A stretch of DNA of 31,023 nt from a virus, in the IMG/VR virus record IMGVR_UViG_3300018411_000059, positions 1 through 31,023 of that record; one strand, 5' to 3'. The first letter of the stretch is position 1. Each line of letters opens with the position of its first letter. Below the pieces are notes generated by a model, which had not been told where the DNA came from, did no database searches, and saw nothing but the letters and a program-made list of their open reading frames with translations. Positions 3,476 through 12,496 of the stretch are shown here, piece by piece. The translations under genes and the position numbers were made by a program.

Positions 3476-3586
3476 GCACCGAAGTGCTTATTCTTTTTTA
3501 CCGTACCTCCTCTTTTAAGGTACAGTTTTTCTTACTCTTAAAAACAGTATAACACCTCAGTACGGCATTAAAAGGTTTTTATACGG
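3476..3586 (-). promoter_or_regulatory. promoter and double-hairpin leader module C
   Basis: Read on the minus strand, the module has a 26-bp box (3586-3561), a -10 like TATACT (3551-3546), a hairpin with GTACCT/AGGTAC arms (3503-3508, 3518-3523), an AATAAG linker, and a 4-bp hairpin with a C(UUCG)G tetraloop (3476-3487), then the SD of the 3455 gene. The box matches the one at 6876-6901 at 25 of 26 positions. The box overlaps the 3' end of the 3557-3775 gene. Transcription probably starts near 3539. Promoter function is inferred from position, conservation and the -10 match. Confidence 0.65.
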
Positions 3587-5379: not shown

Positions 5380-5402
5380 AAGAACCGTCTCCTTTTGTTA
5401 TT

Positions 5403-5511
5403 GTACCACATAGGTACTTATTCTAAACCGTGCTACTCCCTGTAGCACGCACCTCTACCTCTTAAATATAGTATATAAAAAACTATACGGTATTGATACC
5501 TTTTTATTCGG
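5403..5511 (-). promoter_or_regulatory. promoter and double-hairpin leader module B
   Basis: On the minus strand: the upstream box (5511-5486, 21 of 26 matches to the box of module A), -10 TATACT (5475-5470), a hairpin CGTGCTAC/GTAGCACG (5429-5436, 5442-5449), the conserved AATAAG linker, a hairpin GTACC/GGTAC with a 5-base loop (5403-5407, 5413-5417), then the SD of the 5379 gene. Element order and spacing match modules A and C while the stem sequences differ, which points to conserved structure rather than chance. Transcription probably starts near 5463. Confidence 0.65.
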
Positions 5512-5754
5512 ATTACTTTGGTTTTCTTTGGCTGCCATTATAAAAACCATCCGAAGTTGCCAGTCCATTCTGTATTTATCTCCATCTACAAAAATAAAAA
5601 CTAACCATAACCATTATAATTTTCTCCTAAAAAATAATTCTACCTAATCTATACTATTATAACACCTAAACTTATATAGACTAACCCGTAATAGAATGTA
5701 AATACAATAGAAAGAGTATAGACCGTATAAGTAGTATAGAAACATATTAAGATC
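5512..5754. other. non-coding stretch with decayed peptide remnants
   Basis: No credible gene. On the minus strand near 5534-5625 there are short Trp/Gly/Asn-rich reading fragments (NYNGYG then stop; TEWTGNFGWFL then stop) that echo the decayed peptide in 6945-7400. A divergent copy of the 36-bp repeat begins ACTTATATAG at 5670 and ends near 5705. The rest is AT-rich without clear signals. Confidence 0.4.
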
Positions 5755-5875
5755 ATTTATATAGCCGAAGATGTTCTATTACAAAAATATACTTATATAG
5801 CCAAAGATGTTCTATTATAAAAATACACTTATACCGTAGGCGATGTACTGTATAAAAATATACTTATATAGCCAA
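5755..5875. repeat. 36-bp tandem repeats with hairpins
   Basis: Three adjacent units, 5755-5790, 5791-5826 and 5827-5861 (36, 36 and 35 bp), plus the first 14 bases of a fourth. Each contains a stem such as TTATATAG paired with CTATTATAA (one bulge) around a loop with GATGT. In unit 3 the stem becomes TTATACCGT/ACTGTATAA, with changes on both sides that keep most pairs. There are no spacers, so this is not a CRISPR array. Iteron-like origin, protein binding array or tandem RNA hairpins are possible. Confidence 0.6.
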
Positions 5876-5925
5876 CGGGGTAGAGCCCACTCCGTTCCAC
5901 ACCCAAGTGACCCACCGGTCACACA

Positions 5926-5952
5926 CCGTACAGATACCTACAGACTCCATAT
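5926..5952. repeat. dispersed 'ACAGATACCTACA...CTCCATAT' repeat, copy 1
   Basis: First of four related copies, with others at 6212-6252, 6317-6357 and 7307-7323. It shares CCGTACAGA with the 7307 copy and ACAGATACCTACA with the 6212 copy. It lies at the 3' side of the 5956-6183 gene and touches its stop codon region. Function unknown; it looks like a fragment of a duplicated module. Confidence 0.5.
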
Positions 5953-5955
5953 ACA

Positions 5956-6183
5956 CTATTCTACCACCTCAATCCATATACTGTCCCTAACCAAACACAC
6001 ATCTTCAAAGTCCGCTCCGAAGATCTCATAGAACTCCTCACACCATGTAAGCCACTCATAGTGTACTCCATCATTCTTTGTAAAAGAGTTGTCTTCGTTC
6101 CATTTTGCAGACACAACCGTACCACCATCTGCAATACTGATGAATTTTTCACCATTTTTAGTTATTTTTACGTTAATTTCCAT
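5956..6183 (-). CDS. small hypothetical protein of the local paralogous family
   Basis: 75 residues from the ATG at 6183, with TGGAGA five bases upstream; the in-frame ATG at 6195 has no SD. The N-terminus forms a beta-like hairpin (INVKITKNGEKFISIADGG). The C-terminus (EWLTWCEEFYEIFGADFEDVCLVRDSIWIEV) resembles the ends of the 4837-5379 and 3021-3455 proteins. It is a solitary gene in a repeat-rich region, with no promoter module of the A/B/C type in front of it. Function unknown. Confidence 0.65.
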   Translation of the reverse strand: MEINVKITKNGEKFISIADGGTVVSAKWNEDNSFTKNDGVHYEWLTWCEEFYEIFGADFEDVCLVRDSIWIEVVE

Positions 6184-6387: not shown

Positions 6388-6741
6388 TTAATACCTGAAA
6401 AATCTTCCAGGTATTACAAGTTCCTCTTCCATATCCTCCTCATCGTTTGTATAGTTGAATACAAACCCGAGGATGTTCATAGTACTTCTGCCTCTGCTAC
6501 CGAGATCAGAAGCAATCCGATAGACCCATTCATCCACACTTACTCCATTAGTCACTTTATCCTTTGTGCTATCCGCAAACCTCTCCACTTGCTGATGAAG
6601 TAGAGTGATTTCTTCCTTGTCGGTAACTATTGTTACCGACAAGGACTCCATTACTCTTCTTTCGAATGTTTCCACAAAAGGGAATAGTTTATTCAAGCTG
6701 TAAGGTGTTATGACCGTTGTTCCACATGTGTAAGTTTGCAT
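6388..6741 (-). CDS. hypothetical protein behind module A, with coding hairpins
   Basis: 117 residues, ATG at 6741 after AAAGGAGA. Predicted mixed alpha/beta with an acidic C-terminus (NDEEDMEEELVIPGRFFRY); no family recognised. The DNA holds three strong inverted repeats. AATACCTG/CAGGTATT lies at 6390-6415. GTTTGTAT/ATACAAAC at 6445-6466 is nested inside ATCCTC/GAGGAT. A perfect 14-bp stem with a 4-base loop at 6614-6645 is nested inside an 8-bp stem at 6602-6657. The last one encodes SLSVTIVTDKE. Such structures inside coding sequence are unusual and resemble the 7447-8512 operon. A single-gene unit driven by module A is likely. Confidence 0.7.
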   Translation of the reverse strand: MQTYTCGTTVITPYSLNKLFPFVETFERRVMESLSVTIVTDKEEITLLHQQVERFADSTKDKVTNGVSVDEWVYRIASDLGSRGRSTMNILGFVFNYTNDEEDMEEELVIPGRFFRY

Positions 6742-6767: not shown

Positions 6768-6901
6768 GTACCGTTCAGGTACTTATTTTGTTCCGTACAG
6801 CTACCGATTAGCCGTACAGATGTCCTTTGAATAGACATAGCTCTGCCTATTCATATATACAGTGTATCAAACGTATACGGCATTAAAAGGTTTTTATTCG
6901 G
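6768..6901 (-). promoter_or_regulatory. promoter and hairpin leader module A
   Basis: On the minus strand: the 26-bp box (6901-6876), -10 TACACT (6866-6861), a 7-bp hairpin at the probable 5' end of the RNA (6828-6834/6847-6853), a 12-bp stem with two wobble pairs and loop ATCGG (6792-6803/6809-6820), the AATAAG linker, a GTACC/GGTAC hairpin (6768-6772/6778-6782), then the SD of the 6741 gene. The box is identical to that of module C at 25 of 26 positions, over 3 kb away. Confidence 0.68.
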
Positions 6902-6944
6902 TATTTTTGCAAAAATTTACGGGGTAATGGTGTGTATGTGGTTG

Positions 6945-7400
6945 TTATTCCGTTGGTGTACGGACAGTGGTTAAACGGTTTGTGGTGTTTATGCGGTAGT
7001 TGGTGCAGTGGAGAACGGTGTGCATATGGTGTTTGTGTGGTGTAGTTGGTTTCCAATAATCGGTGCCATAACCGTTCCAGTTTTCGGCAGCCATATGTCC
7101 CACATACTCCACATACTCTCCATTCAGGTTCCAAATATCTTCCAAATTCCCACGGAAACCGATTGCCTTGTAACCATTCCCCATAACTTGGTTAAAAAAC
7201 CATCATTCCCATGGCGCACCGATTATTTGCCAACCATCCCCAGTATGACCGGAATAGTCTCCAGTTTTCGGCAGCCATGGTGAATAACATCCAACCCCAA
7301 ATAGAACCGTACAGACTCCATATCACCATCTTTCAAGCCATATACCCCATAGGGAAACCGACTTCTCCATAACCGTTCCAGTTTTCGGTGATTGGACGGA
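6945..7400 (-). pseudogene. decayed repeats of a Trp/Gly/Asn-rich peptide
   Basis: No intact gene with an SD is seen, but minus-strand frames hold related fragments separated by stops: ENWNGYGEVGFPMGYMA, GDYSGHTGDGWQIIGAPWE, GNGYKAIGFRGNLEDIW and YVGHMAAENWNGYGTDYW. At DNA level, CCATAACCGTTCCAGTTTTCGG occurs at 7066-7087 and 7367-7388, and CCAGTTTTCGGCAGCCAT at 7077-7094 and 7261-7278. The simplest reading is an ancestral repeated small protein broken by indels and stops. A 79-residue frame at 6945-7184 includes one fragment but has no SD. An alternative is a DNA repeat with chance coding potential. Confidence 0.4.
7307..7323. repeat. dispersed repeat, copy 4
   Basis: CCGTACAGACTCCATAT is a shortened version of the element at 5926-5952. 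The following sequence (7338-7363, CCATATACCCCATAGGG..ACCGACTT) matches the flank of the 6212 copy, supporting segmental duplication. Confidence 0.45.
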
Positions 7401-7412
7401 TCCGAATAGCAA

Positions 7413-7443
7413 TAAAAAAAGCAGGCATATTTCAGCCTGCCTT
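7413..7443 (-). terminator. intrinsic terminator of the 8512-7447 operon
   Basis: Immediately after the stop of the 7447-7848 gene, the minus strand has GCAGGC (7440-7435), an 8-base loop, GCCTGC (7426-7421), then a run of seven T (7420-7414). This is a standard Rho-independent terminator and defines the end of the three-gene operon. Confidence 0.85.
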
Positions 7444-7446
7444 CCC

Positions 7447-7848
7447 TTAATGATGTTGCAAACGTGCAAAGTTGTATAAAACGTCTGCAAAATCTTTGTT
7501 TAAAATATATAACAGGTCATTATCACGACTATCTAAGGTAATAAGACCTGTTTTCTCAATAGCCTTGAAAAACGTTCTCAGCTTATCAAGGCTGATGTCA
7601 TTATTAAGTGTCTGATCTGCATATACAGACTTCTCAGTCACTTTACACTCATACATGAATAATTCACTCTTTTTGTAATAAGAATAAAACTCATCACTCA
7701 TACCTATTGCATGAGCTTGTATTTCCTTCAAGCTCATGCAATCCTGATCAGACAATGAGCATATTGTCATTGCCTGAAAGACTAATCTATAATTGAAGTT
7801 ATGAGCTAGCTTTTCAAAAGCTAGCTCATATTGATCAGATAATAGCAT
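7447..7848 (-). CDS. hypothetical protein encoded in hairpin-tiled DNA
   Basis: 133 residues, ATG at 7848 preceded by AAAGGT; one base separates it from the stop of the 7850-8035 gene. The protein is predicted helical (YELAFEKLAHNFNYRLVFQAM, LDKLRTFFKAIEKTGLITLD), and the C-terminal half has the feel of a small winged-helix or helical bundle, though I recognise no family. The DNA is exceptional: at least eight inverted repeats cover it, including a 14-bp perfect stem (7706-7719/7729-7742) and a 15-bp perfect stem with a one-base centre (7800-7830) that encodes YELAFEKLAH. Its SD and ATG lie in another 12-bp stem (7833-7859). Last gene of the operon. Confidence 0.72.
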   Translation of the reverse strand: MLLSDQYELAFEKLAHNFNYRLVFQAMTICSLSDQDCMSLKEIQAHAIGMSDEFYSYYKKSELFMYECKVTEKSVYADQTLNNDISLDKLRTFFKAIEKTGLITLDSRDNDLLYILNKDFADVLYNFARLQHH

Positions 7849-7859
7849 ATTATCTGACC
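7833..7859 (-). promoter_or_regulatory. hairpin enclosing SD and ATG of the 7848 gene
   Basis: GATCAGATAATA (7833-7844) pairs with TATTATCTGACC (7848-7859) over 12 bp, one of them a G-T wobble, with a 3-base loop. On the minus strand the ATG (7848-7846) straddles the loop, and part of the SD plus the upstream stop codon are in the stem. Initiation would need the stem to be opened, for example by ribosomes finishing the upstream gene; this coupling is inferred. Confidence 0.55.
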
Positions 7860-8035
7860 TTTATTTTTAGAATAATATAGCAGAACACTGCAATACCTAT
7901 CATAGCAGTGTTACAAAACACTGTTTCAGCGTCCTTCACTGTCAAAGTGAAGGCTGAAACAGTTGAGGTTTTTTGTAGCAGGCTAAAAATGTTGCCTGCT
8001 ACAATTACGAAAAGTACAAGTTTAATGTCTCTCAT
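7850..8035 (-). CDS. small putative two-span membrane protein
   Basis: 61 residues, ATG at 8035 after AAAGGAT. Two hydrophobic segments (about 4-20, IKLVLFVIVAGNIFSLL; about 42-57, NTAMIGIAVFCYIILK) flank a short polar region, and the C-terminus is basic (KIKVR). Size and topology would fit a small holin-like or accessory membrane protein, but position in the early arm gives no support for lysis. The coding DNA consists of three consecutive hairpins: 7884-7912, 7920-7963 (18 bp with a 3-base bulge) and 7973-8004 (11 bp). Middle gene of the operon 8512-7447. Confidence 0.65.
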   Translation of the reverse strand: MRDIKLVLFVIVAGNIFSLLQKTSTVSAFTLTVKDAETVFCNTAMIGIAVFCYIILKIKVR

Positions 8036-8092
8036 GATATCAATCCTTTATGTTATAGGCTAGCCCTTTTAGGCTAGCCTTAATTGTTTGTT

Positions 8093-8512
8093 TTAAGCCT
8101 TTTTCTTAGTTTTAGGCTTTTTTGTTTCAAGTTCAAGTGCAGTCAATATTGACTGCTTGAAAACTAATTTATCAATCTTCACGTCGAAAAACGACGTGAA
8201 AACGTCCTTTGCTTGCACGTGTTCTGCAATCCTTAAGCGATTTTTGAGGCGATAATTTGTTGCCTCAAACAGTTTAGTTAAGGCAAAGAATGACACCTCA
8301 TTCTTCCCTGCACTATGCAGGGATTTAACTGCATCGACGATTATATCGTCGATTAAACTCGTTTCAGTACGTTTTCCTTTTTTAAAGCGAGTACTCTTAA
8401 ATAGAGTGCTTTTCTCACTTGAAGAGCTTATAATGTTTCTCTCTTCTTCAGGAACACTTTCAGCTTCTGTTAAAATGTCAAGAACGTTGATTGATTTCTT
8501 TTCTGTAGTCAT
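8093..8512 (-). CDS. basic hypothetical protein, first gene of the hairpin-tiled operon
   Basis: 139 residues, ATG at 8512 after AAAAAGGAAT. The N-terminal third is polar and acidic (TEAESVPEEER, SSSSEKS), the middle basic (FKKGKRTETSLIDDIIVDAV), and the C-terminus ends in a Lys tail (ETKKPKTKKKA). A helical core (about 60-125) follows. A basic tail fits nucleic-acid binding, but that is inference. The coding DNA has at least seven consecutive inverted repeats (8132-8412), several perfect with 8-9 bp arms. It is transcribed from the promoter at 8655-8683 through a leader with entangled stems. Confidence 0.72.
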   Translation of the reverse strand: MTTEKKSINVLDILTEAESVPEEERNIISSSSEKSTLFKSTRFKKGKRTETSLIDDIIVDAVKSLHSAGKNEVSFFALTKLFEATNYRLKNRLRIAEHVQAKDVFTSFFDVKIDKLVFKQSILTALELETKKPKTKKKA

Positions 8513-8520
8513 GATATTAT

Positions 8521-8648
8521 TCCTTTTTCTTTTAATACGCTCATGTTAAGAGTGCAGCGAATGAGCGTACTTATTTTGTTTAGATATAGCAATCCCTTTG
8601 ACTGCCTGTGCTGCACTCTGTTTGTAAAAGAACTGTTTCGCTCTGTTG
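8521..8648 (-). promoter_or_regulatory. leader RNA with pseudoknot-type entangled stems
   Basis: On the minus strand the leader carries AGAGTGCAGC (8619-8610), then TACGCTCAT (8569-8561), then GCTGCACTCT (8558-8549), then ATGAGCGTA (8544-8536), then the SD. Stem 1 (10 bp) and stem 2 (9 bp) are both perfect and interleaved (a-b-a'-b'). The 4-base link across stem 1 is short for 10 bp, so the stems may be mutually exclusive rather than coexisting. The AATAAG linker before stem 2 is shared with modules A-C. Confidence 0.65.
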
Positions 8649-8654
8649 TCTATA

Positions 8655-8683
8655 GTTATATTGTAAGTTTATTTATATGTAAA
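8655..8683 (-). promoter_or_regulatory. sigma70-like promoter for the 8512-7447 operon
   Basis: On the minus strand, TTTACA (8683-8678), a 17-base spacer, and TATAAC (8660-8655); each hexamer matches the consensus at five of six positions. Transcription would start near 8648, giving a leader of about 136 bases before the ATG at 8512. Confidence 0.7.
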
Positions 8684-9084: not shown

Positions 9085-9594
9085 ATGGCTAAAGTAAAAA
9101 AGAAAAACGATATAAACACAAAGGTAGGTAGCTTAGGTATTATTAAGGGCAACGGTGTTGAGGCGTTTGACTTTGCACGTACTTGTGATGAAGACTGTCC
9201 TTTATATGATCATTGTAATAACGATAAGGAAGGTAAGTGTGCAGTGCATGTGATGTACATGGATTATGTGCAGCAGAGGTTAGGCGTTCACTTCTTAAAG
9301 AACCTTGACGACGTGAGCAAGTTAAAGGTCAGTGTTGAGTTATTTCCTTTGTTTAAGCAACTACTCACCTTTAAGCTTTATGAAGCCACACTTCCCCTAA
9401 GCCAAATAACTAATGATAAAGGGGGCGTTAACGGTGTGTACAGGGAAATGCGTCAGGTTATTGTAGCTATTAATAACTTGCTTGATGATTTAGGTGCTAA
9501 CAACAAGCGTGTTAAGGCTGCAAAGGGTAAGGAGAATGTTACAGACGCTGACTTTCATAGTAAGTTATTGAAGGGTGAGGTGAAGAATGCCTAA
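9085..9594 (+). CDS. candidate terminase small subunit, cysteine-rich
   Basis: 169 residues. It lies immediately upstream of the large terminase and overlaps it by 8 bases, the usual place and size for a small terminase subunit, which recognises phage DNA and recruits the large subunit. I do not recognise a DNA-binding helix-turn-helix with confidence. The N-terminus is basic (MAKVKKKND) and is followed by C34-x3-C38-x5-C44-x7-C52, a possible zinc or iron-sulfur site unusual for small terminases. The middle is helical (LFPLFKQLLTFKLYEATLPL, REMRQVIVAINNLLDDL). The functional call rests on position; a packaging-linked protein of unknown type is the alternative. Confidence 0.6.
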   Translation: MAKVKKKNDINTKVGSLGIIKGNGVEAFDFARTCDEDCPLYDHCNNDKEGKCAVHVMYMDYVQQRLGVHFLKNLDDVSKLKVSVELFPLFKQLLTFKLYEATLPLSQITNDKGGVNGVYREMRQVIVAINNLLDDLGANNKRVKAAKGKENVTDADFHSKLLKGEVKNA

Positions 9595-12496
9595 GTTGCG
9601 TAGCAGGAAGCGTAATTTGCGTGAGGAGAGGGGCAGTGATAAGGTCTTGAAGAAGGGCAGACCTATTAAGGCTGAGAAGACACGTGAGGAGATACGGTAT
9701 CAGGACGGTGGTGATGGTTTTGTAAAGTTCATTGAGGACTTTGTATGCTTTAAGATCTTTCCCATTAATGATCCCATGCCTCGATGGACACCTGTTAAGG
9801 AGTTGCCTGACACTCCTCACCCTGACACTTCACGCTCATACTGGGAGATGTGGCTTAAAGAGAAGGAAGTGTTAAAGAAGGCGTTAGAGATGGATGACAA
9901 CGGCAACTTCTTGCATCGTGTGATTGTTTTGTGCTGGATGCGTGGTGAGGGGAAGTGTCAGGCTAAAGGCTCAAAAGTTATTATGTGGGACGGGAGTTTG
10001 AGGAAGGTTGAAGACGTTCAGGTAGGTGATCTTCTTATGGGTGACGATTCAACACCTCGAAAAGTTTTAAGTCTTGCTTCTGGAGAAGAGGAGTTGTTTG
10101 AAGTTATTCCTTATAGAGGTACTCCTAAGACGTTCACAAAAGATCATGTACTATCTTTAAAGAACAGTTCAGGCAATGTTGTTGATATATCTATCAAGGA
10201 CTATTTATTAAAGAATAAGTCTTTTAAAAGGAGTCATTATCTTTATCATGTGCCTATTGAGTTTGAAGATAAGGAAGTTTCTATCAGTCCTTACTTTTTA
10301 GGGTTATGGCTTGGGGACGGTTCAAAGCATGCTACGCATATAACAACACCAGACAAAGAAATAGTTTCCTATCTTGAAGAGCATGCAGACTTATTAGGTT
10401 TGCGTGTTACAGAGCGTGTTAAGAATAAGGGAGAAAATAAAGCTAAGACTTATTGCACTGTAGGTTCAACACGAGGGGAGTACCATAATAATTCGTTATT
10501 ATGGAGAATGAAGGATTATGATCTTATTAATAATAAGCATATTCCTCATGATTATAAATGCAACTCAAGAGAGAAGCGTCTTGAACTTCTTGCAGGGATT
10601 ATTGACAGTGACGGATACTTAAATAGAAACTCGTTTCAAGTAACTCAAAAGAGTAAAACTTTGACTGACGATATTGCATTTCTTGCAAGGTCATTAGGTT
10701 TTTTTGTGAATGTTTCTAAGTGTACTAAAGGAATTAAGGAGACTGGTTTTTCTGGTGAGTACTACACTATTGGGATTTCTGGCGATTGTTCTATAATTCC
10801 TTGCAAGGTTGAAAGAAAGAAAGCTAGTGTTAGGAATCATAAGAAAGATGTACTTTGTACTGGGATTAAGGAGATTAAGAGTGCAGGCGTGCAGGAATAT
10901 TATGGGTTTGAGCTTGACGGTAATCATCGCTATGTTTTAGAGGACTTTACTGTAACTCATAATTCGTTTTTAGCATGCTTGATTCAGTTATGGAAGTTCT
11001 TTTGCTTTCCAGACCAGCAAATAGTACTAGGAGCTAACTCAAAAGATCAAAGTAAGTTTGTCCACTTTGACATTATCTGTGAGATCATTCAAAATTCTCC
11101 AAAACTTCTTGCAATAGTTAAGCGTGAGAACATACAACAGAAAGAAATACGCATCCTTGATGAGAATAAAAAGATTGTGAGTGCTATTAAGAGTATTAGT
11201 AGTTTTAGCGGTATTGTTTCTAACATTACTGGGTATACTTTTTCTGAAATCTTTGACATGAAAAACCCTAAGTTCTTTACGCAGCTTGACGGCTCTACAA
11301 GGAACGTGCCTAACGCTCTTGGAGTTATTGACAGTACAGTTTCAGAAAAGACTCACATACTTTATAGGTTGTACAAGGCTTATACTAAGGCTGAAGACCC
11401 TTCATTATTTTTCTCATATCGTTGTTCCCCTACTGCTGATGCGAACGATTTTTGGCATCCTTACATGACTCAGACACAATTAAACTCTTTTAAGACGAAG
11501 TTTTTGCCTGCAGATTATGATAGGTACTTTAAGAATACTTGGGAGAGTGGAGAAAATACTGTCTTTACTGAGGACATGATTAAGTGTTGTAGGTATATTG
11601 GTTTTGATGGGCAGTTAGGTATGCAGCAAAAACTAATAAGGCTATTTAAAGATGCTAAAAAGCTTGCAGAAAACCCTTCAATGAGGGAAATACCTGATTT
11701 TGCTCATGTAGATTCAGATTTACAAAAGGTTATTCCTATTAATAAGGTGTATTCCTTTAATGATGAGAGGGGAATCCCTAAAATGATGTCCCTTGAAGAA
11801 CTGCACAGGCTTTCTGACTATTATGATACTGATTTTTCTCTTGGTGTTGGGATTGACAGGGCTGACCCTCTTAAAGACGACCTTACAAGGGGTGCAAGGA
11901 CTATTGTGACTGCAATTCTTAAAGGTTTACATGGCAGCAGGAGTCATGTAGGTTTATATGAAGAGGCAGAGCAGGACTATATTTACTTTTGTGCTGGTAT
12001 GTGGCACTTAAAAGGGAACGATTTGAACTCAATCAAGGCTGTTCTTGACGAAATTGTGACTGAACTCTTCTCTATTGAGAGTGTTTGCGGTGAGAGATGG
12101 GGCTTATGGGATTTAGTTGACTGGTGTGATGATAATGACGTCACATTTTCGGCAATTAGTCCTACATACGACCTTCAAAAGACTGCATTCTCAGAATTAC
12201 ATACTCTTATAAGGGAAGGAAGATACAAAACTCCCTCAATCCCTATTCAGGGAAACACTTTTGACGACATTTTTCAGGAAGAAGCACTTAAATTTGTGCA
12301 TGATAGTAAGAATCGGTTTTATGGAAGTCCTGAAAAGCATGAAAACTACGGTGTGCAAGACGATTCTATGTTTGCTAAAGCTTGGGGACTTTATGGATTG
12401 AGGTTGTTAAACCCTGACGATTTTGTTAAAAGAAGTTTTAATAAGTTTATGGGTATGTTTATGGAAGATAAAAATAATAGGAGACTTATACAATGA
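9587..12496 (+). CDS. terL: terminase large subunit interrupted by an intein
   Basis: 969 residues as translated; 633 after removal of the intein (residues 124-459). The large subunit is the ATPase that drives DNA into the prohead and the nuclease that cuts concatemers. The joined extein restores a terminase-type Walker A, MRGEGK-S, with the intein between K123 and S460. A probable Walker B region is YTFSEIFD (E554). RNase H-like nuclease residues are probably D757 (GVGIDRADP) and D925/D926 (QDDSMFAKAW). GAGGTG precedes the ATG, and the gene overlaps its neighbours on both sides by 8 and 4 bases. Assignment as TerL is firm; the exact acidic residues are inferred from motif shape. Confidence 0.93.
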   Translation: MPKLRSRKRNLREERGSDKVLKKGRPIKAEKTREEIRYQDGGDGFVKFIEDFVCFKIFPINDPMPRWTPVKELPDTPHPDTSRSYWEMWLKEKEVLKKALEMDDNGNFLHRVIVLCWMRGEGKCQAKGSKVIMWDGSLRKVEDVQVGDLLMGDDSTPRKVLSLASGEEELFEVIPYRGTPKTFTKDHVLSLKNSSGNVVDISIKDYLLKNKSFKRSHYLYHVPIEFEDKEVSISPYFLGLWLGDGSKHATHITTPDKEIVSYLEEHADLLGLRVTERVKNKGENKAKTYCTVGSTRGEYHNNSLLWRMKDYDLINNKHIPHDYKCNSREKRLELLAGIIDSDGYLNRNSFQVTQKSKTLTDDIAFLARSLGFFVNVSKCTKGIKETGFSGEYYTIGISGDCSIIPCKVERKKASVRNHKKDVLCTGIKEIKSAGVQEYYGFELDGNHRYVLEDFTVTHNSFLACLIQLWKFFCFPDQQIVLGANSKDQSKFVHFDIICEIIQNSPKLLAIVKRENIQQKEIRILDENKKIVSAIKSISSFSGIVSNITGYTFSEIFDMKNPKFFTQLDGSTRNVPNALGVIDSTVSEKTHILYRLYKAYTKAEDPSLFFSYRCSPTADANDFWHPYMTQTQLNSFKTKFLPADYDRYFKNTWESGENTVFTEDMIKCCRYIGFDGQLGMQQKLIRLFKDAKKLAENPSMREIPDFAHVDSDLQKVIPINKVYSFNDERGIPKMMSLEELHRLSDYYDTDFSLGVGIDRADPLKDDLTRGARTIVTAILKGLHGSRSHVGLYEEAEQDYIYFCAGMWHLKGNDLNSIKAVLDEIVTELFSIESVCGERWGLWDLVDWCDDNDVTFSAISPTYDLQKTAFSELHTLIREGRYKTPSIPIQGNTFDDIFQEEALKFVHDSKNRFYGSPEKHENYGVQDDSMFAKAWGLYGLRLLNPDDFVKRSFNKFMGMFMEDKNNRRLIQ
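9956..10963 (+). other. LAGLIDADG intein inside TerL Walker A
   Basis: 336 residues. It starts with C124 (CQAKGSKVIMWDGSLRKV, a typical intein block A), includes a block B-like TFTKDHVLSL, and ends with block G VTHN (N459) before S460, the +1 nucleophile. Splicing would join K123 to S460. Two LAGLIDADG motifs are present, LGLWLGDG (238-245) and LAGIIDSDG (335-343), each with acidic residues in place, so the homing endonuclease may be active. Block F is near YYGFELDGNHRYVLEDF. All splice-junction residues look intact. Insertion in the ATP-binding loop is typical of inteins, which favour conserved active sites. Confidence 0.93.

What the first reader, a model, noticed from the sequence alone, without database searches (positions are those of the whole stretch)
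8536..8619. Interleaved perfect stems (pseudoknot or switch) in the leader of the hairpin operon
The 10-base AGAGTGCAGC (8619-8610) pairs with the loop of a 9-bp hairpin (8536-8544/8561-8569), giving a-b-a'-b' topology. Both stems are perfect, which is very unlikely by chance. The short 4-base crossing suggests the two cannot both form fully, i.e. a two-state RNA switch just upstream of the SD. The linker before stem 2 is shared with three other leaders, so stem 2 occupies the standard pre-SD hairpin position.
Basis: partly seen in the sequence, partly recalled or inferred. Interest (0 to 1): 0.72.

Follow-up and report, generated by a model that had tools for sequence, protein, structure and literature searches.

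The report
Conserved pseudoknot in phage mRNA leader
The start of a phage messenger RNA carries two interlocking base-paired stems just before the ribosome-binding site; a related phage keeps the same two-stem layout with largely different letters, so it is very probably a real RNA control or protection element rather than chance, although its exact action is untested.

Summary
On the minus strand, S1 (8619-8610/8558-8549, 10 bp) and S2 (8569-8561/8544-8536, 9 bp) are perfect and interleaved (L1 40, L2 2, L3 4 nt). None of 5000 dinucleotide shuffles of the leader gives such a pair. The only other phage found with this operon (L004) has the same arrangement: S1 12 bp, S2 9 bp, L1 20, L2 5, L3 8, with S2 ending 22 nt before ATG (23 in the window). 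In a structure-based alignment, 8 of 19 pairs differ on both sides and none is broken. The strict two-state switch is not supported: L3 is marginal for the full S1 but fits once one pair opens, is ample in L004, and start-codon masking in the S1-only state is seen in the window but not in L004. Best reading: an H-type pseudoknot built on the pre-SD hairpin of an early operon, acting in cis on translation or mRNA stability. The operon's three ORFs are extraordinarily hairpin-rich in both phages (z -5 to -8 against synonymous shuffles), which is unexplained and perhaps the larger finding.

The parts
8655..8683 (-). Predicted promoter TTTACA-17-TATAAC; TSS about 8648
   Evidence: Read directly; L004 has TTGACA-17-AATTAT at the matching place. 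Prediction only.
8610..8619 (-). S1 5' strand AGAGTGCAGC
8588..8606 (-). Hairpin A inside L1 (GGCAGUC/GAUUGCU with G.U pairs)
   Evidence: Folds; not conserved in L004
8570..8575 (-). AATAAG linker shared with other leaders
8561..8569 (-). S2 5' strand TACGCTCAT (pre-SD hairpin, 5' arm)
8549..8558 (-). S1 3' strand GCTGCACTCT, in the loop of S2
8545..8548 (-). L3, 4-nt crossing TAAC
8536..8544 (-). S2 3' strand ATGAGCGTA
8521..8526 (-). Shine-Dalgarno AAAGGA
   Evidence: Read directly
8093..8512 (-). orf1, 139 aa, unknown function, 65% identical in L004; coding sequence rich in hairpins
8057..8080 (-). Pre-SD hairpin between orf1 and orf2 (AGGCTAGCC/GGCTAGCCT), 21 nt before the orf2 start
7850..8035 (-). 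orf2, 61 aa, two hydrophobic segments
7447..7848 (-). orf3, 133 aa, unknown function, 56% identical in L004; strongest excess of hairpins
7414..7447 (-). Terminator-like hairpin and T-run at the end of the operon

Best explanation
The leader of the orf1-2-3 operon folds into an H-type RNA pseudoknot. The phage places a hairpin about 20-26 nt before the start codon of many early genes. In this leader that hairpin (S2) has an enlarged loop holding the 3' strand of a second stem (S1), whose 5' strand lies near the 5' end of the transcript. S1 forms first during transcription, S2 then closes over it, and the knot ends just upstream of the expected 30S footprint, leaving the SD free. It most likely acts in cis as a 5' stabiliser and as a platform that tunes ribosome loading on the operon, possibly as the target of a phage or host protein. 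Shown here: the stems, their order, their excess over chance and the matching layout in L004. Inferred: that both stems coexist, that the knot forms in the cell, and the effect on translation or stability.
For: Two perfect interleaved stems, 0/5000 shuffles. Same topology, position and S2-to-ATG spacing in L004. Structure-based alignment: S1 6 pairs the same, 4 changed on both sides, 0 broken; S2 4 the same, 1 changed on one side, 4 on both, 0 broken. Placing the same 17 changes at random on the 38 paired sites never keeps all 19 pairs in 200000 trials, best 17. Pre-SD hairpins recur 19-26 nt before starts in both phages, several with UUCG or GAAA tetraloops, which points to RNA. Generic pseudoknot estimate against best ordinary fold: -40.6 v -31.6 kcal/mol in the window, -32.5 v -25.6 in L004; S1 forms as soon as its 3' strand is made. 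Geometry allows both stems in L004, and in the window with one pair open.
Against: Only two sequences. Register homology of single pairs rests on a structure-based alignment; MAFFT does not recover it. Coding hairpins of this operon turn over out of register, so part of the leader covariation could be turnover too. L3 = 4 nt is tight. The pseudoknot penalty is one generic constant recalled from memory. L004 has a competing 7-bp extension of S1. No Rfam match. No expression data.
Confidence: 0.55

Rival explanations
1. Two-state switch: S1 and S2 exclude each other. With S1 alone the freed 3' arm of S2 pairs with the start codon (OFF); with S2 the start is open (ON). A ligand, protein, temperature or the pace of transcription chooses.
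For: In the window the S1-only fold pairs the start codon (unpaired probability 0.02-0.04), while S2 frees it to about 0.45-0.76. L3 is only 4 nt. In L004 a 7-bp extension of S1 covers L3 and would clash with S2.
Against: In L004 the S1-only state leaves ATG open (about 0.88-0.96) while the S2-only state pairs part of it, the reverse of the window. Geometry and rough energies allow both stems together.
Confidence: 0.27
2. General consequence of pressure, or of a mutational process such as template switching, that fills this operon with perfect hairpins; the leader stems are two more of them with no function of their own as a knot.
For: orf1-3 are packed with perfect hairpins in both phages, and many sit out of register between the phages.
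Against: No other interleaved pair with stems of at least 8 bp was found in the operon of either phage, yet both leaders have one in the same place at the same spacing from the start codon.
Confidence: 0.13
3. DNA-level operators: two inverted repeats bound by dimeric repressors in the divergent control region.
For: They lie between divergently transcribed operons, and inverted repeats 9-10 bp long suit dimeric regulators.
Against: The two repeats are unrelated to each other, their arms differ between the phages while self-complementarity is kept, they lie downstream of the predicted start, and S2 is one of a series of pre-SD hairpins, several with RNA tetraloops.
Confidence: 0.05

Closest known systems
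Phage T4/T2/RB69 gene 32 leader pseudoknot (translational operator)
   Same: Phage mRNA, pseudoknot in the 5' leader upstream of the SD, related phages keep the topology with diverged sequence (PMC535899, PMC3014915).
   Different: The T4 knot spans about 28 nt and lies some 67 nt before the start, followed by UUAAA repeats bound by gp32. Here the element spans 84 nt, abuts the RBS, and the operon shows no ssDNA-binding protein match.
E. coli rpsO (S15) translational operator pseudoknot
   Same: Leader pseudoknot near the RBS, noted in PMC3014915; alternative hairpin and knot states (own knowledge).
   Different: No ribosomal protein match here; stems are longer and the SD lies outside the knot.
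IncI-alpha/IncB repZ pseudoknot
   Same: A loop strand pairs with a distant strand next to an RBS (own knowledge).
   Different: No leader peptide or antisense RNA was found or sought here.
Pre-SD/intercistronic CUUCGG hairpins of phage T4
   Same: Stable hairpins, several with UUCG loops, placed just before starts; T4 comparison from own knowledge.
   Different: In this leader the hairpin loop is enlarged and knotted to an upstream strand.

Membership tests
H-type RNA pseudoknot | Two stems, each with one strand in the loop of the other | tested here: met
   same in L004
H-type RNA pseudoknot | Loop lengths allow both stems at once | tested here: inconclusive
   Met in L004 (L3 8 nt for 12 bp); in the window only with at least one S1 pair open
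H-type RNA pseudoknot | Both stems shown in the folded RNA | not testable with these tools
   Needs chemical probing or NMR
T4 gene 32-type translational operator | Downstream gene codes for the binding protein (Ssb) | tested here: not met
   orf1-3 match no Ssb or other known family in PHROGs, Pfam or PADLOC
T4 gene 32-type translational operator | Knot separated from the start by UUAAA repeats | tested here: not met
   S2 ends 23 nt before ATG; the spacer is TTAAAAGAAAAAGGAATAATATC, with one UUAAA and no repeats
Known riboswitch or cis-regulatory RNA family in Rfam 15 | Covariance-model match at the gathering score | tested here: not met
   None in the window; only sub-threshold chance matches
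Two-state RBS-sequestering switch | One state masks SD or start codon, conserved in homologues | tested here: not met
   Masking in the window S1 state, not in the L004 S1 state

The most novel reading that the evidence does not exclude
The leader knot is the 5' end of one mRNA kept double-stranded throughout: in both phages the leader and three ORFs form a chain of perfect hairpins kept as a property while individual hairpins turn over, even at the expense of protein sequence. This would be an mRNA in a dsDNA phage selected for bulk structure, to resist RNA-targeting nucleases or defence, or R-loops, with the pseudoknot as its 5' cap and ribosome entry gate.
Probability: 0.2. Interest if true: 0.75.

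Novelty: new variant of a known kind. Interest (0 to 1): 0.52.

Why it matters
[quoted passage not shown] This is another, unrelated phage leader knot with comparative support, built on a pre-SD hairpin series, so it gives a compact test of how a structure just outside the 30S footprint affects initiation. It also heads an operon whose coding RNA is structured far beyond what codon usage explains, a phenomenon for which I found no described counterpart in dsDNA phages in the few literature searches made here.

Tried and rejected
More homologues: eight viral-contig scans (protein or alignment queries with orf1, orf3, the 169-aa gene and the terminase, and one DNA pattern from orf2) and two genome-contig scans for orf1 and orf3; only L004 carries the operon. 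tblastn of orf1 and orf3 in annotated phages, and of orf3 in plasmids: none. Close relatives L002 and L003 end in repeats just before the leader; the whole G002 record lacks orf1 and orf3. AlphaFold models of orf1 and orf3 were too poor to search (mean pLDDT 42.5 and 47.7). Distant relative L006: interleaved stems there come from short repeats in a non-coding stretch, not a homologous leader. ViennaRNA here has no pseudoknot folding routine, so only an estimate was made. MAFFT alignment of the leaders is not usable for pair counts. RBS masking as the conserved output: rejected.

Full report
Setting. The window is a 31,023-bp fragment of a dsDNA phage (IMG/VR record, no other contig). To the right are an intein-bearing terminase, major head protein and tail genes on the plus strand. 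To the left are many small genes on the minus strand. The finding lies in the leader of the first minus-strand operon: orf1 (8512-8093), orf2 (8035-7850) and orf3 (7848-7447), which ends in a terminator-like hairpin at 7447-7414. None of the three proteins has a usable family match.

Observation. The two stems are exactly as described. S1 is AGAGTGCAGC 8619-8610 with GCTGCACTCT 8558-8549. S2 is TACGCTCAT 8569-8561 with ATGAGCGTA 8544-8536, extendable by an outer A-U and G.U. They interleave with L1 40, L2 2 and L3 4 nt. In 5000 dinucleotide shuffles of the leader none gives two interleaved perfect stems of at least 9 bp. The thermodynamic fold, which cannot show both stems, picks S1 plus hairpin A, with z -2.35.

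Homologue. The terminase query found relatives at about 80% identity. One, L004, reaches across the operon. Its leader carries S1 ACAAGACAGCTT/AAGCTGTCTTGT (12 bp) and S2 AGCGTACTC/GAGTACGCT (9 bp) in the same interleaved order, with L1 20, L2 5 and L3 8 nt, and S2 ends 22 nt before ATG against 23 in the window. Aligning the stems by structure, S1 has 6 identical pairs and 4 changed on both sides; S2 has 4 identical, 1 changed on one side and 4 on both; none is broken. Scattering the same number of changes at random never kept all 19 pairs in 200,000 trials. Caveat: this is one comparison, the register of single pairs depends on the structural alignment, and the sequence alignment does not recover it. 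The recurrence of the architecture itself does not depend on that.

Place in the phage's design. Several early genes of both phages have a hairpin ending 19-26 nt before the start codon, after AATAAG in the promoter-proximal leaders. Several are closed by UUCG or GAAA tetraloops, as in GCACUUCGGUGC. S2 is that hairpin. In the other leaders its loop is too short to be knotted, so S1 is special to this operon. Three of the other window leaders follow a shared promoter-like motif CCGNATAAAAA..CCGT.

Knot or switch. In A-form geometry L3 must span 28.6 A for a 10-bp S1 and 25.0 A for 9 bp. Four nucleotides reach roughly 24-28 A, so the full S1 is marginal, and opening the terminal A-U pair relieves it. 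In L004, 8 nt for 33.6 A is easy. With a single generic pseudoknot penalty (9.6 kcal/mol, recalled, not fitted) the knot beats the best ordinary fold in both phages. The natural switch hypothesis, S1 formed and start codon masked by the 3' arm of S2, is visible in the window (ATG unpaired 0.02-0.04) but not in L004 (about 0.88-0.96); there the S2-only state pairs part of the RBS instead. So the conserved thing is the pair of stems, not a particular masking pattern. A switch remains possible, since L004's S1 can be extended by GUUCGAC/GUCGAAU through L3.

The operon behind it. orf1, orf2 and orf3 are far more structured than synonymous-codon shuffles of themselves: z -5.5/-5.6, -5.2/-5.2 and -8.3/-8.2 in window/L004. 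The terminase gives -0.35/+1.4 and other genes mostly between 0 and -3.6, with one head-region gene at -4.7/-3.2. Window-wide folding shows the same peak in the same place in both phages. With the same criterion there are 17 hairpins per 1.07 kb in each operon, against 3.6-5.1 per kb elsewhere. Eight of 19 hairpins sit at overlapping places in the two phages (3.0 expected by rotation, 12/1000), but only four keep their register, all in orf3. So hairpin density is kept while individual hairpins turn over. On the mRNA strand, mismatches inside stems are G.T 9 to A.C 1 (binomial p 0.02, though not different from the phage background, Fisher p 0.14), and for the orf3 stretch the fold is stronger on the mRNA strand than on its complement. 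This leans towards RNA rather than DNA, without proof. It also warns that covariation in the leader could partly be turnover, although no other interleaved pair was found in either operon.

Known systems. The nearest working parallel is the T4-type gene 32 leader pseudoknot: also a phage leader, also kept in shape while the sequence drifts (PMC535899, PMC3014915). It fails membership here because the operon shows no Ssb match and the UUAAA-repeat spacer is absent. Rfam has no match.

Verdict. The feature is real and very probably functional as RNA (about 0.9, my judgement). The preferred mechanism is a cis-acting pseudoknot just upstream of the ribosome-binding site (0.55), with a strict switch second (0.27).

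Noticed in passing
7447-8512 (and L004 7454-8517): All three ORFs are packed with perfect hairpins, z -5 to -8 against synonymous-codon shuffles in both phages, with hairpins turning over between them; no explanation.
   Followed up: partly
6614-6645 and 6389-6416; L004 5645-5696: Further long perfect hairpins outside the operon: 14 bp with a 4-nt loop inside the 117-aa gene, and a 20-bp perfect stem in L004.
   Followed up: no
3562-3586, 5487-5511, 6877-6901: Three copies of a promoter-like motif CCG(A/T)ATAAAAA..CCGT upstream of minus-strand cassettes, each followed by a hairpin, AATAAG, a second hairpin and an SD.
   Followed up: partly
6880-7400 and about 5400-5960: Apparently non-coding stretches rich in repeats such as CCGAAAACTGG and ATGG; in L004 part of the same interval holds an HNH-like gene and a 112-aa gene.
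   Followed up: no
9587-12496: The terminase large subunit carries an intein with a LAGLIDADG homing endonuclease domain; the shorter terminase of distant relative L006 appears to lack it.
   Followed up: partly
L006 1250-4200: Non-coding stretch upstream of the terminase of a distant relative, full of short inverted and direct repeats (GTTTAGTGCTCT, ATTCAATGA).
   Followed up: no
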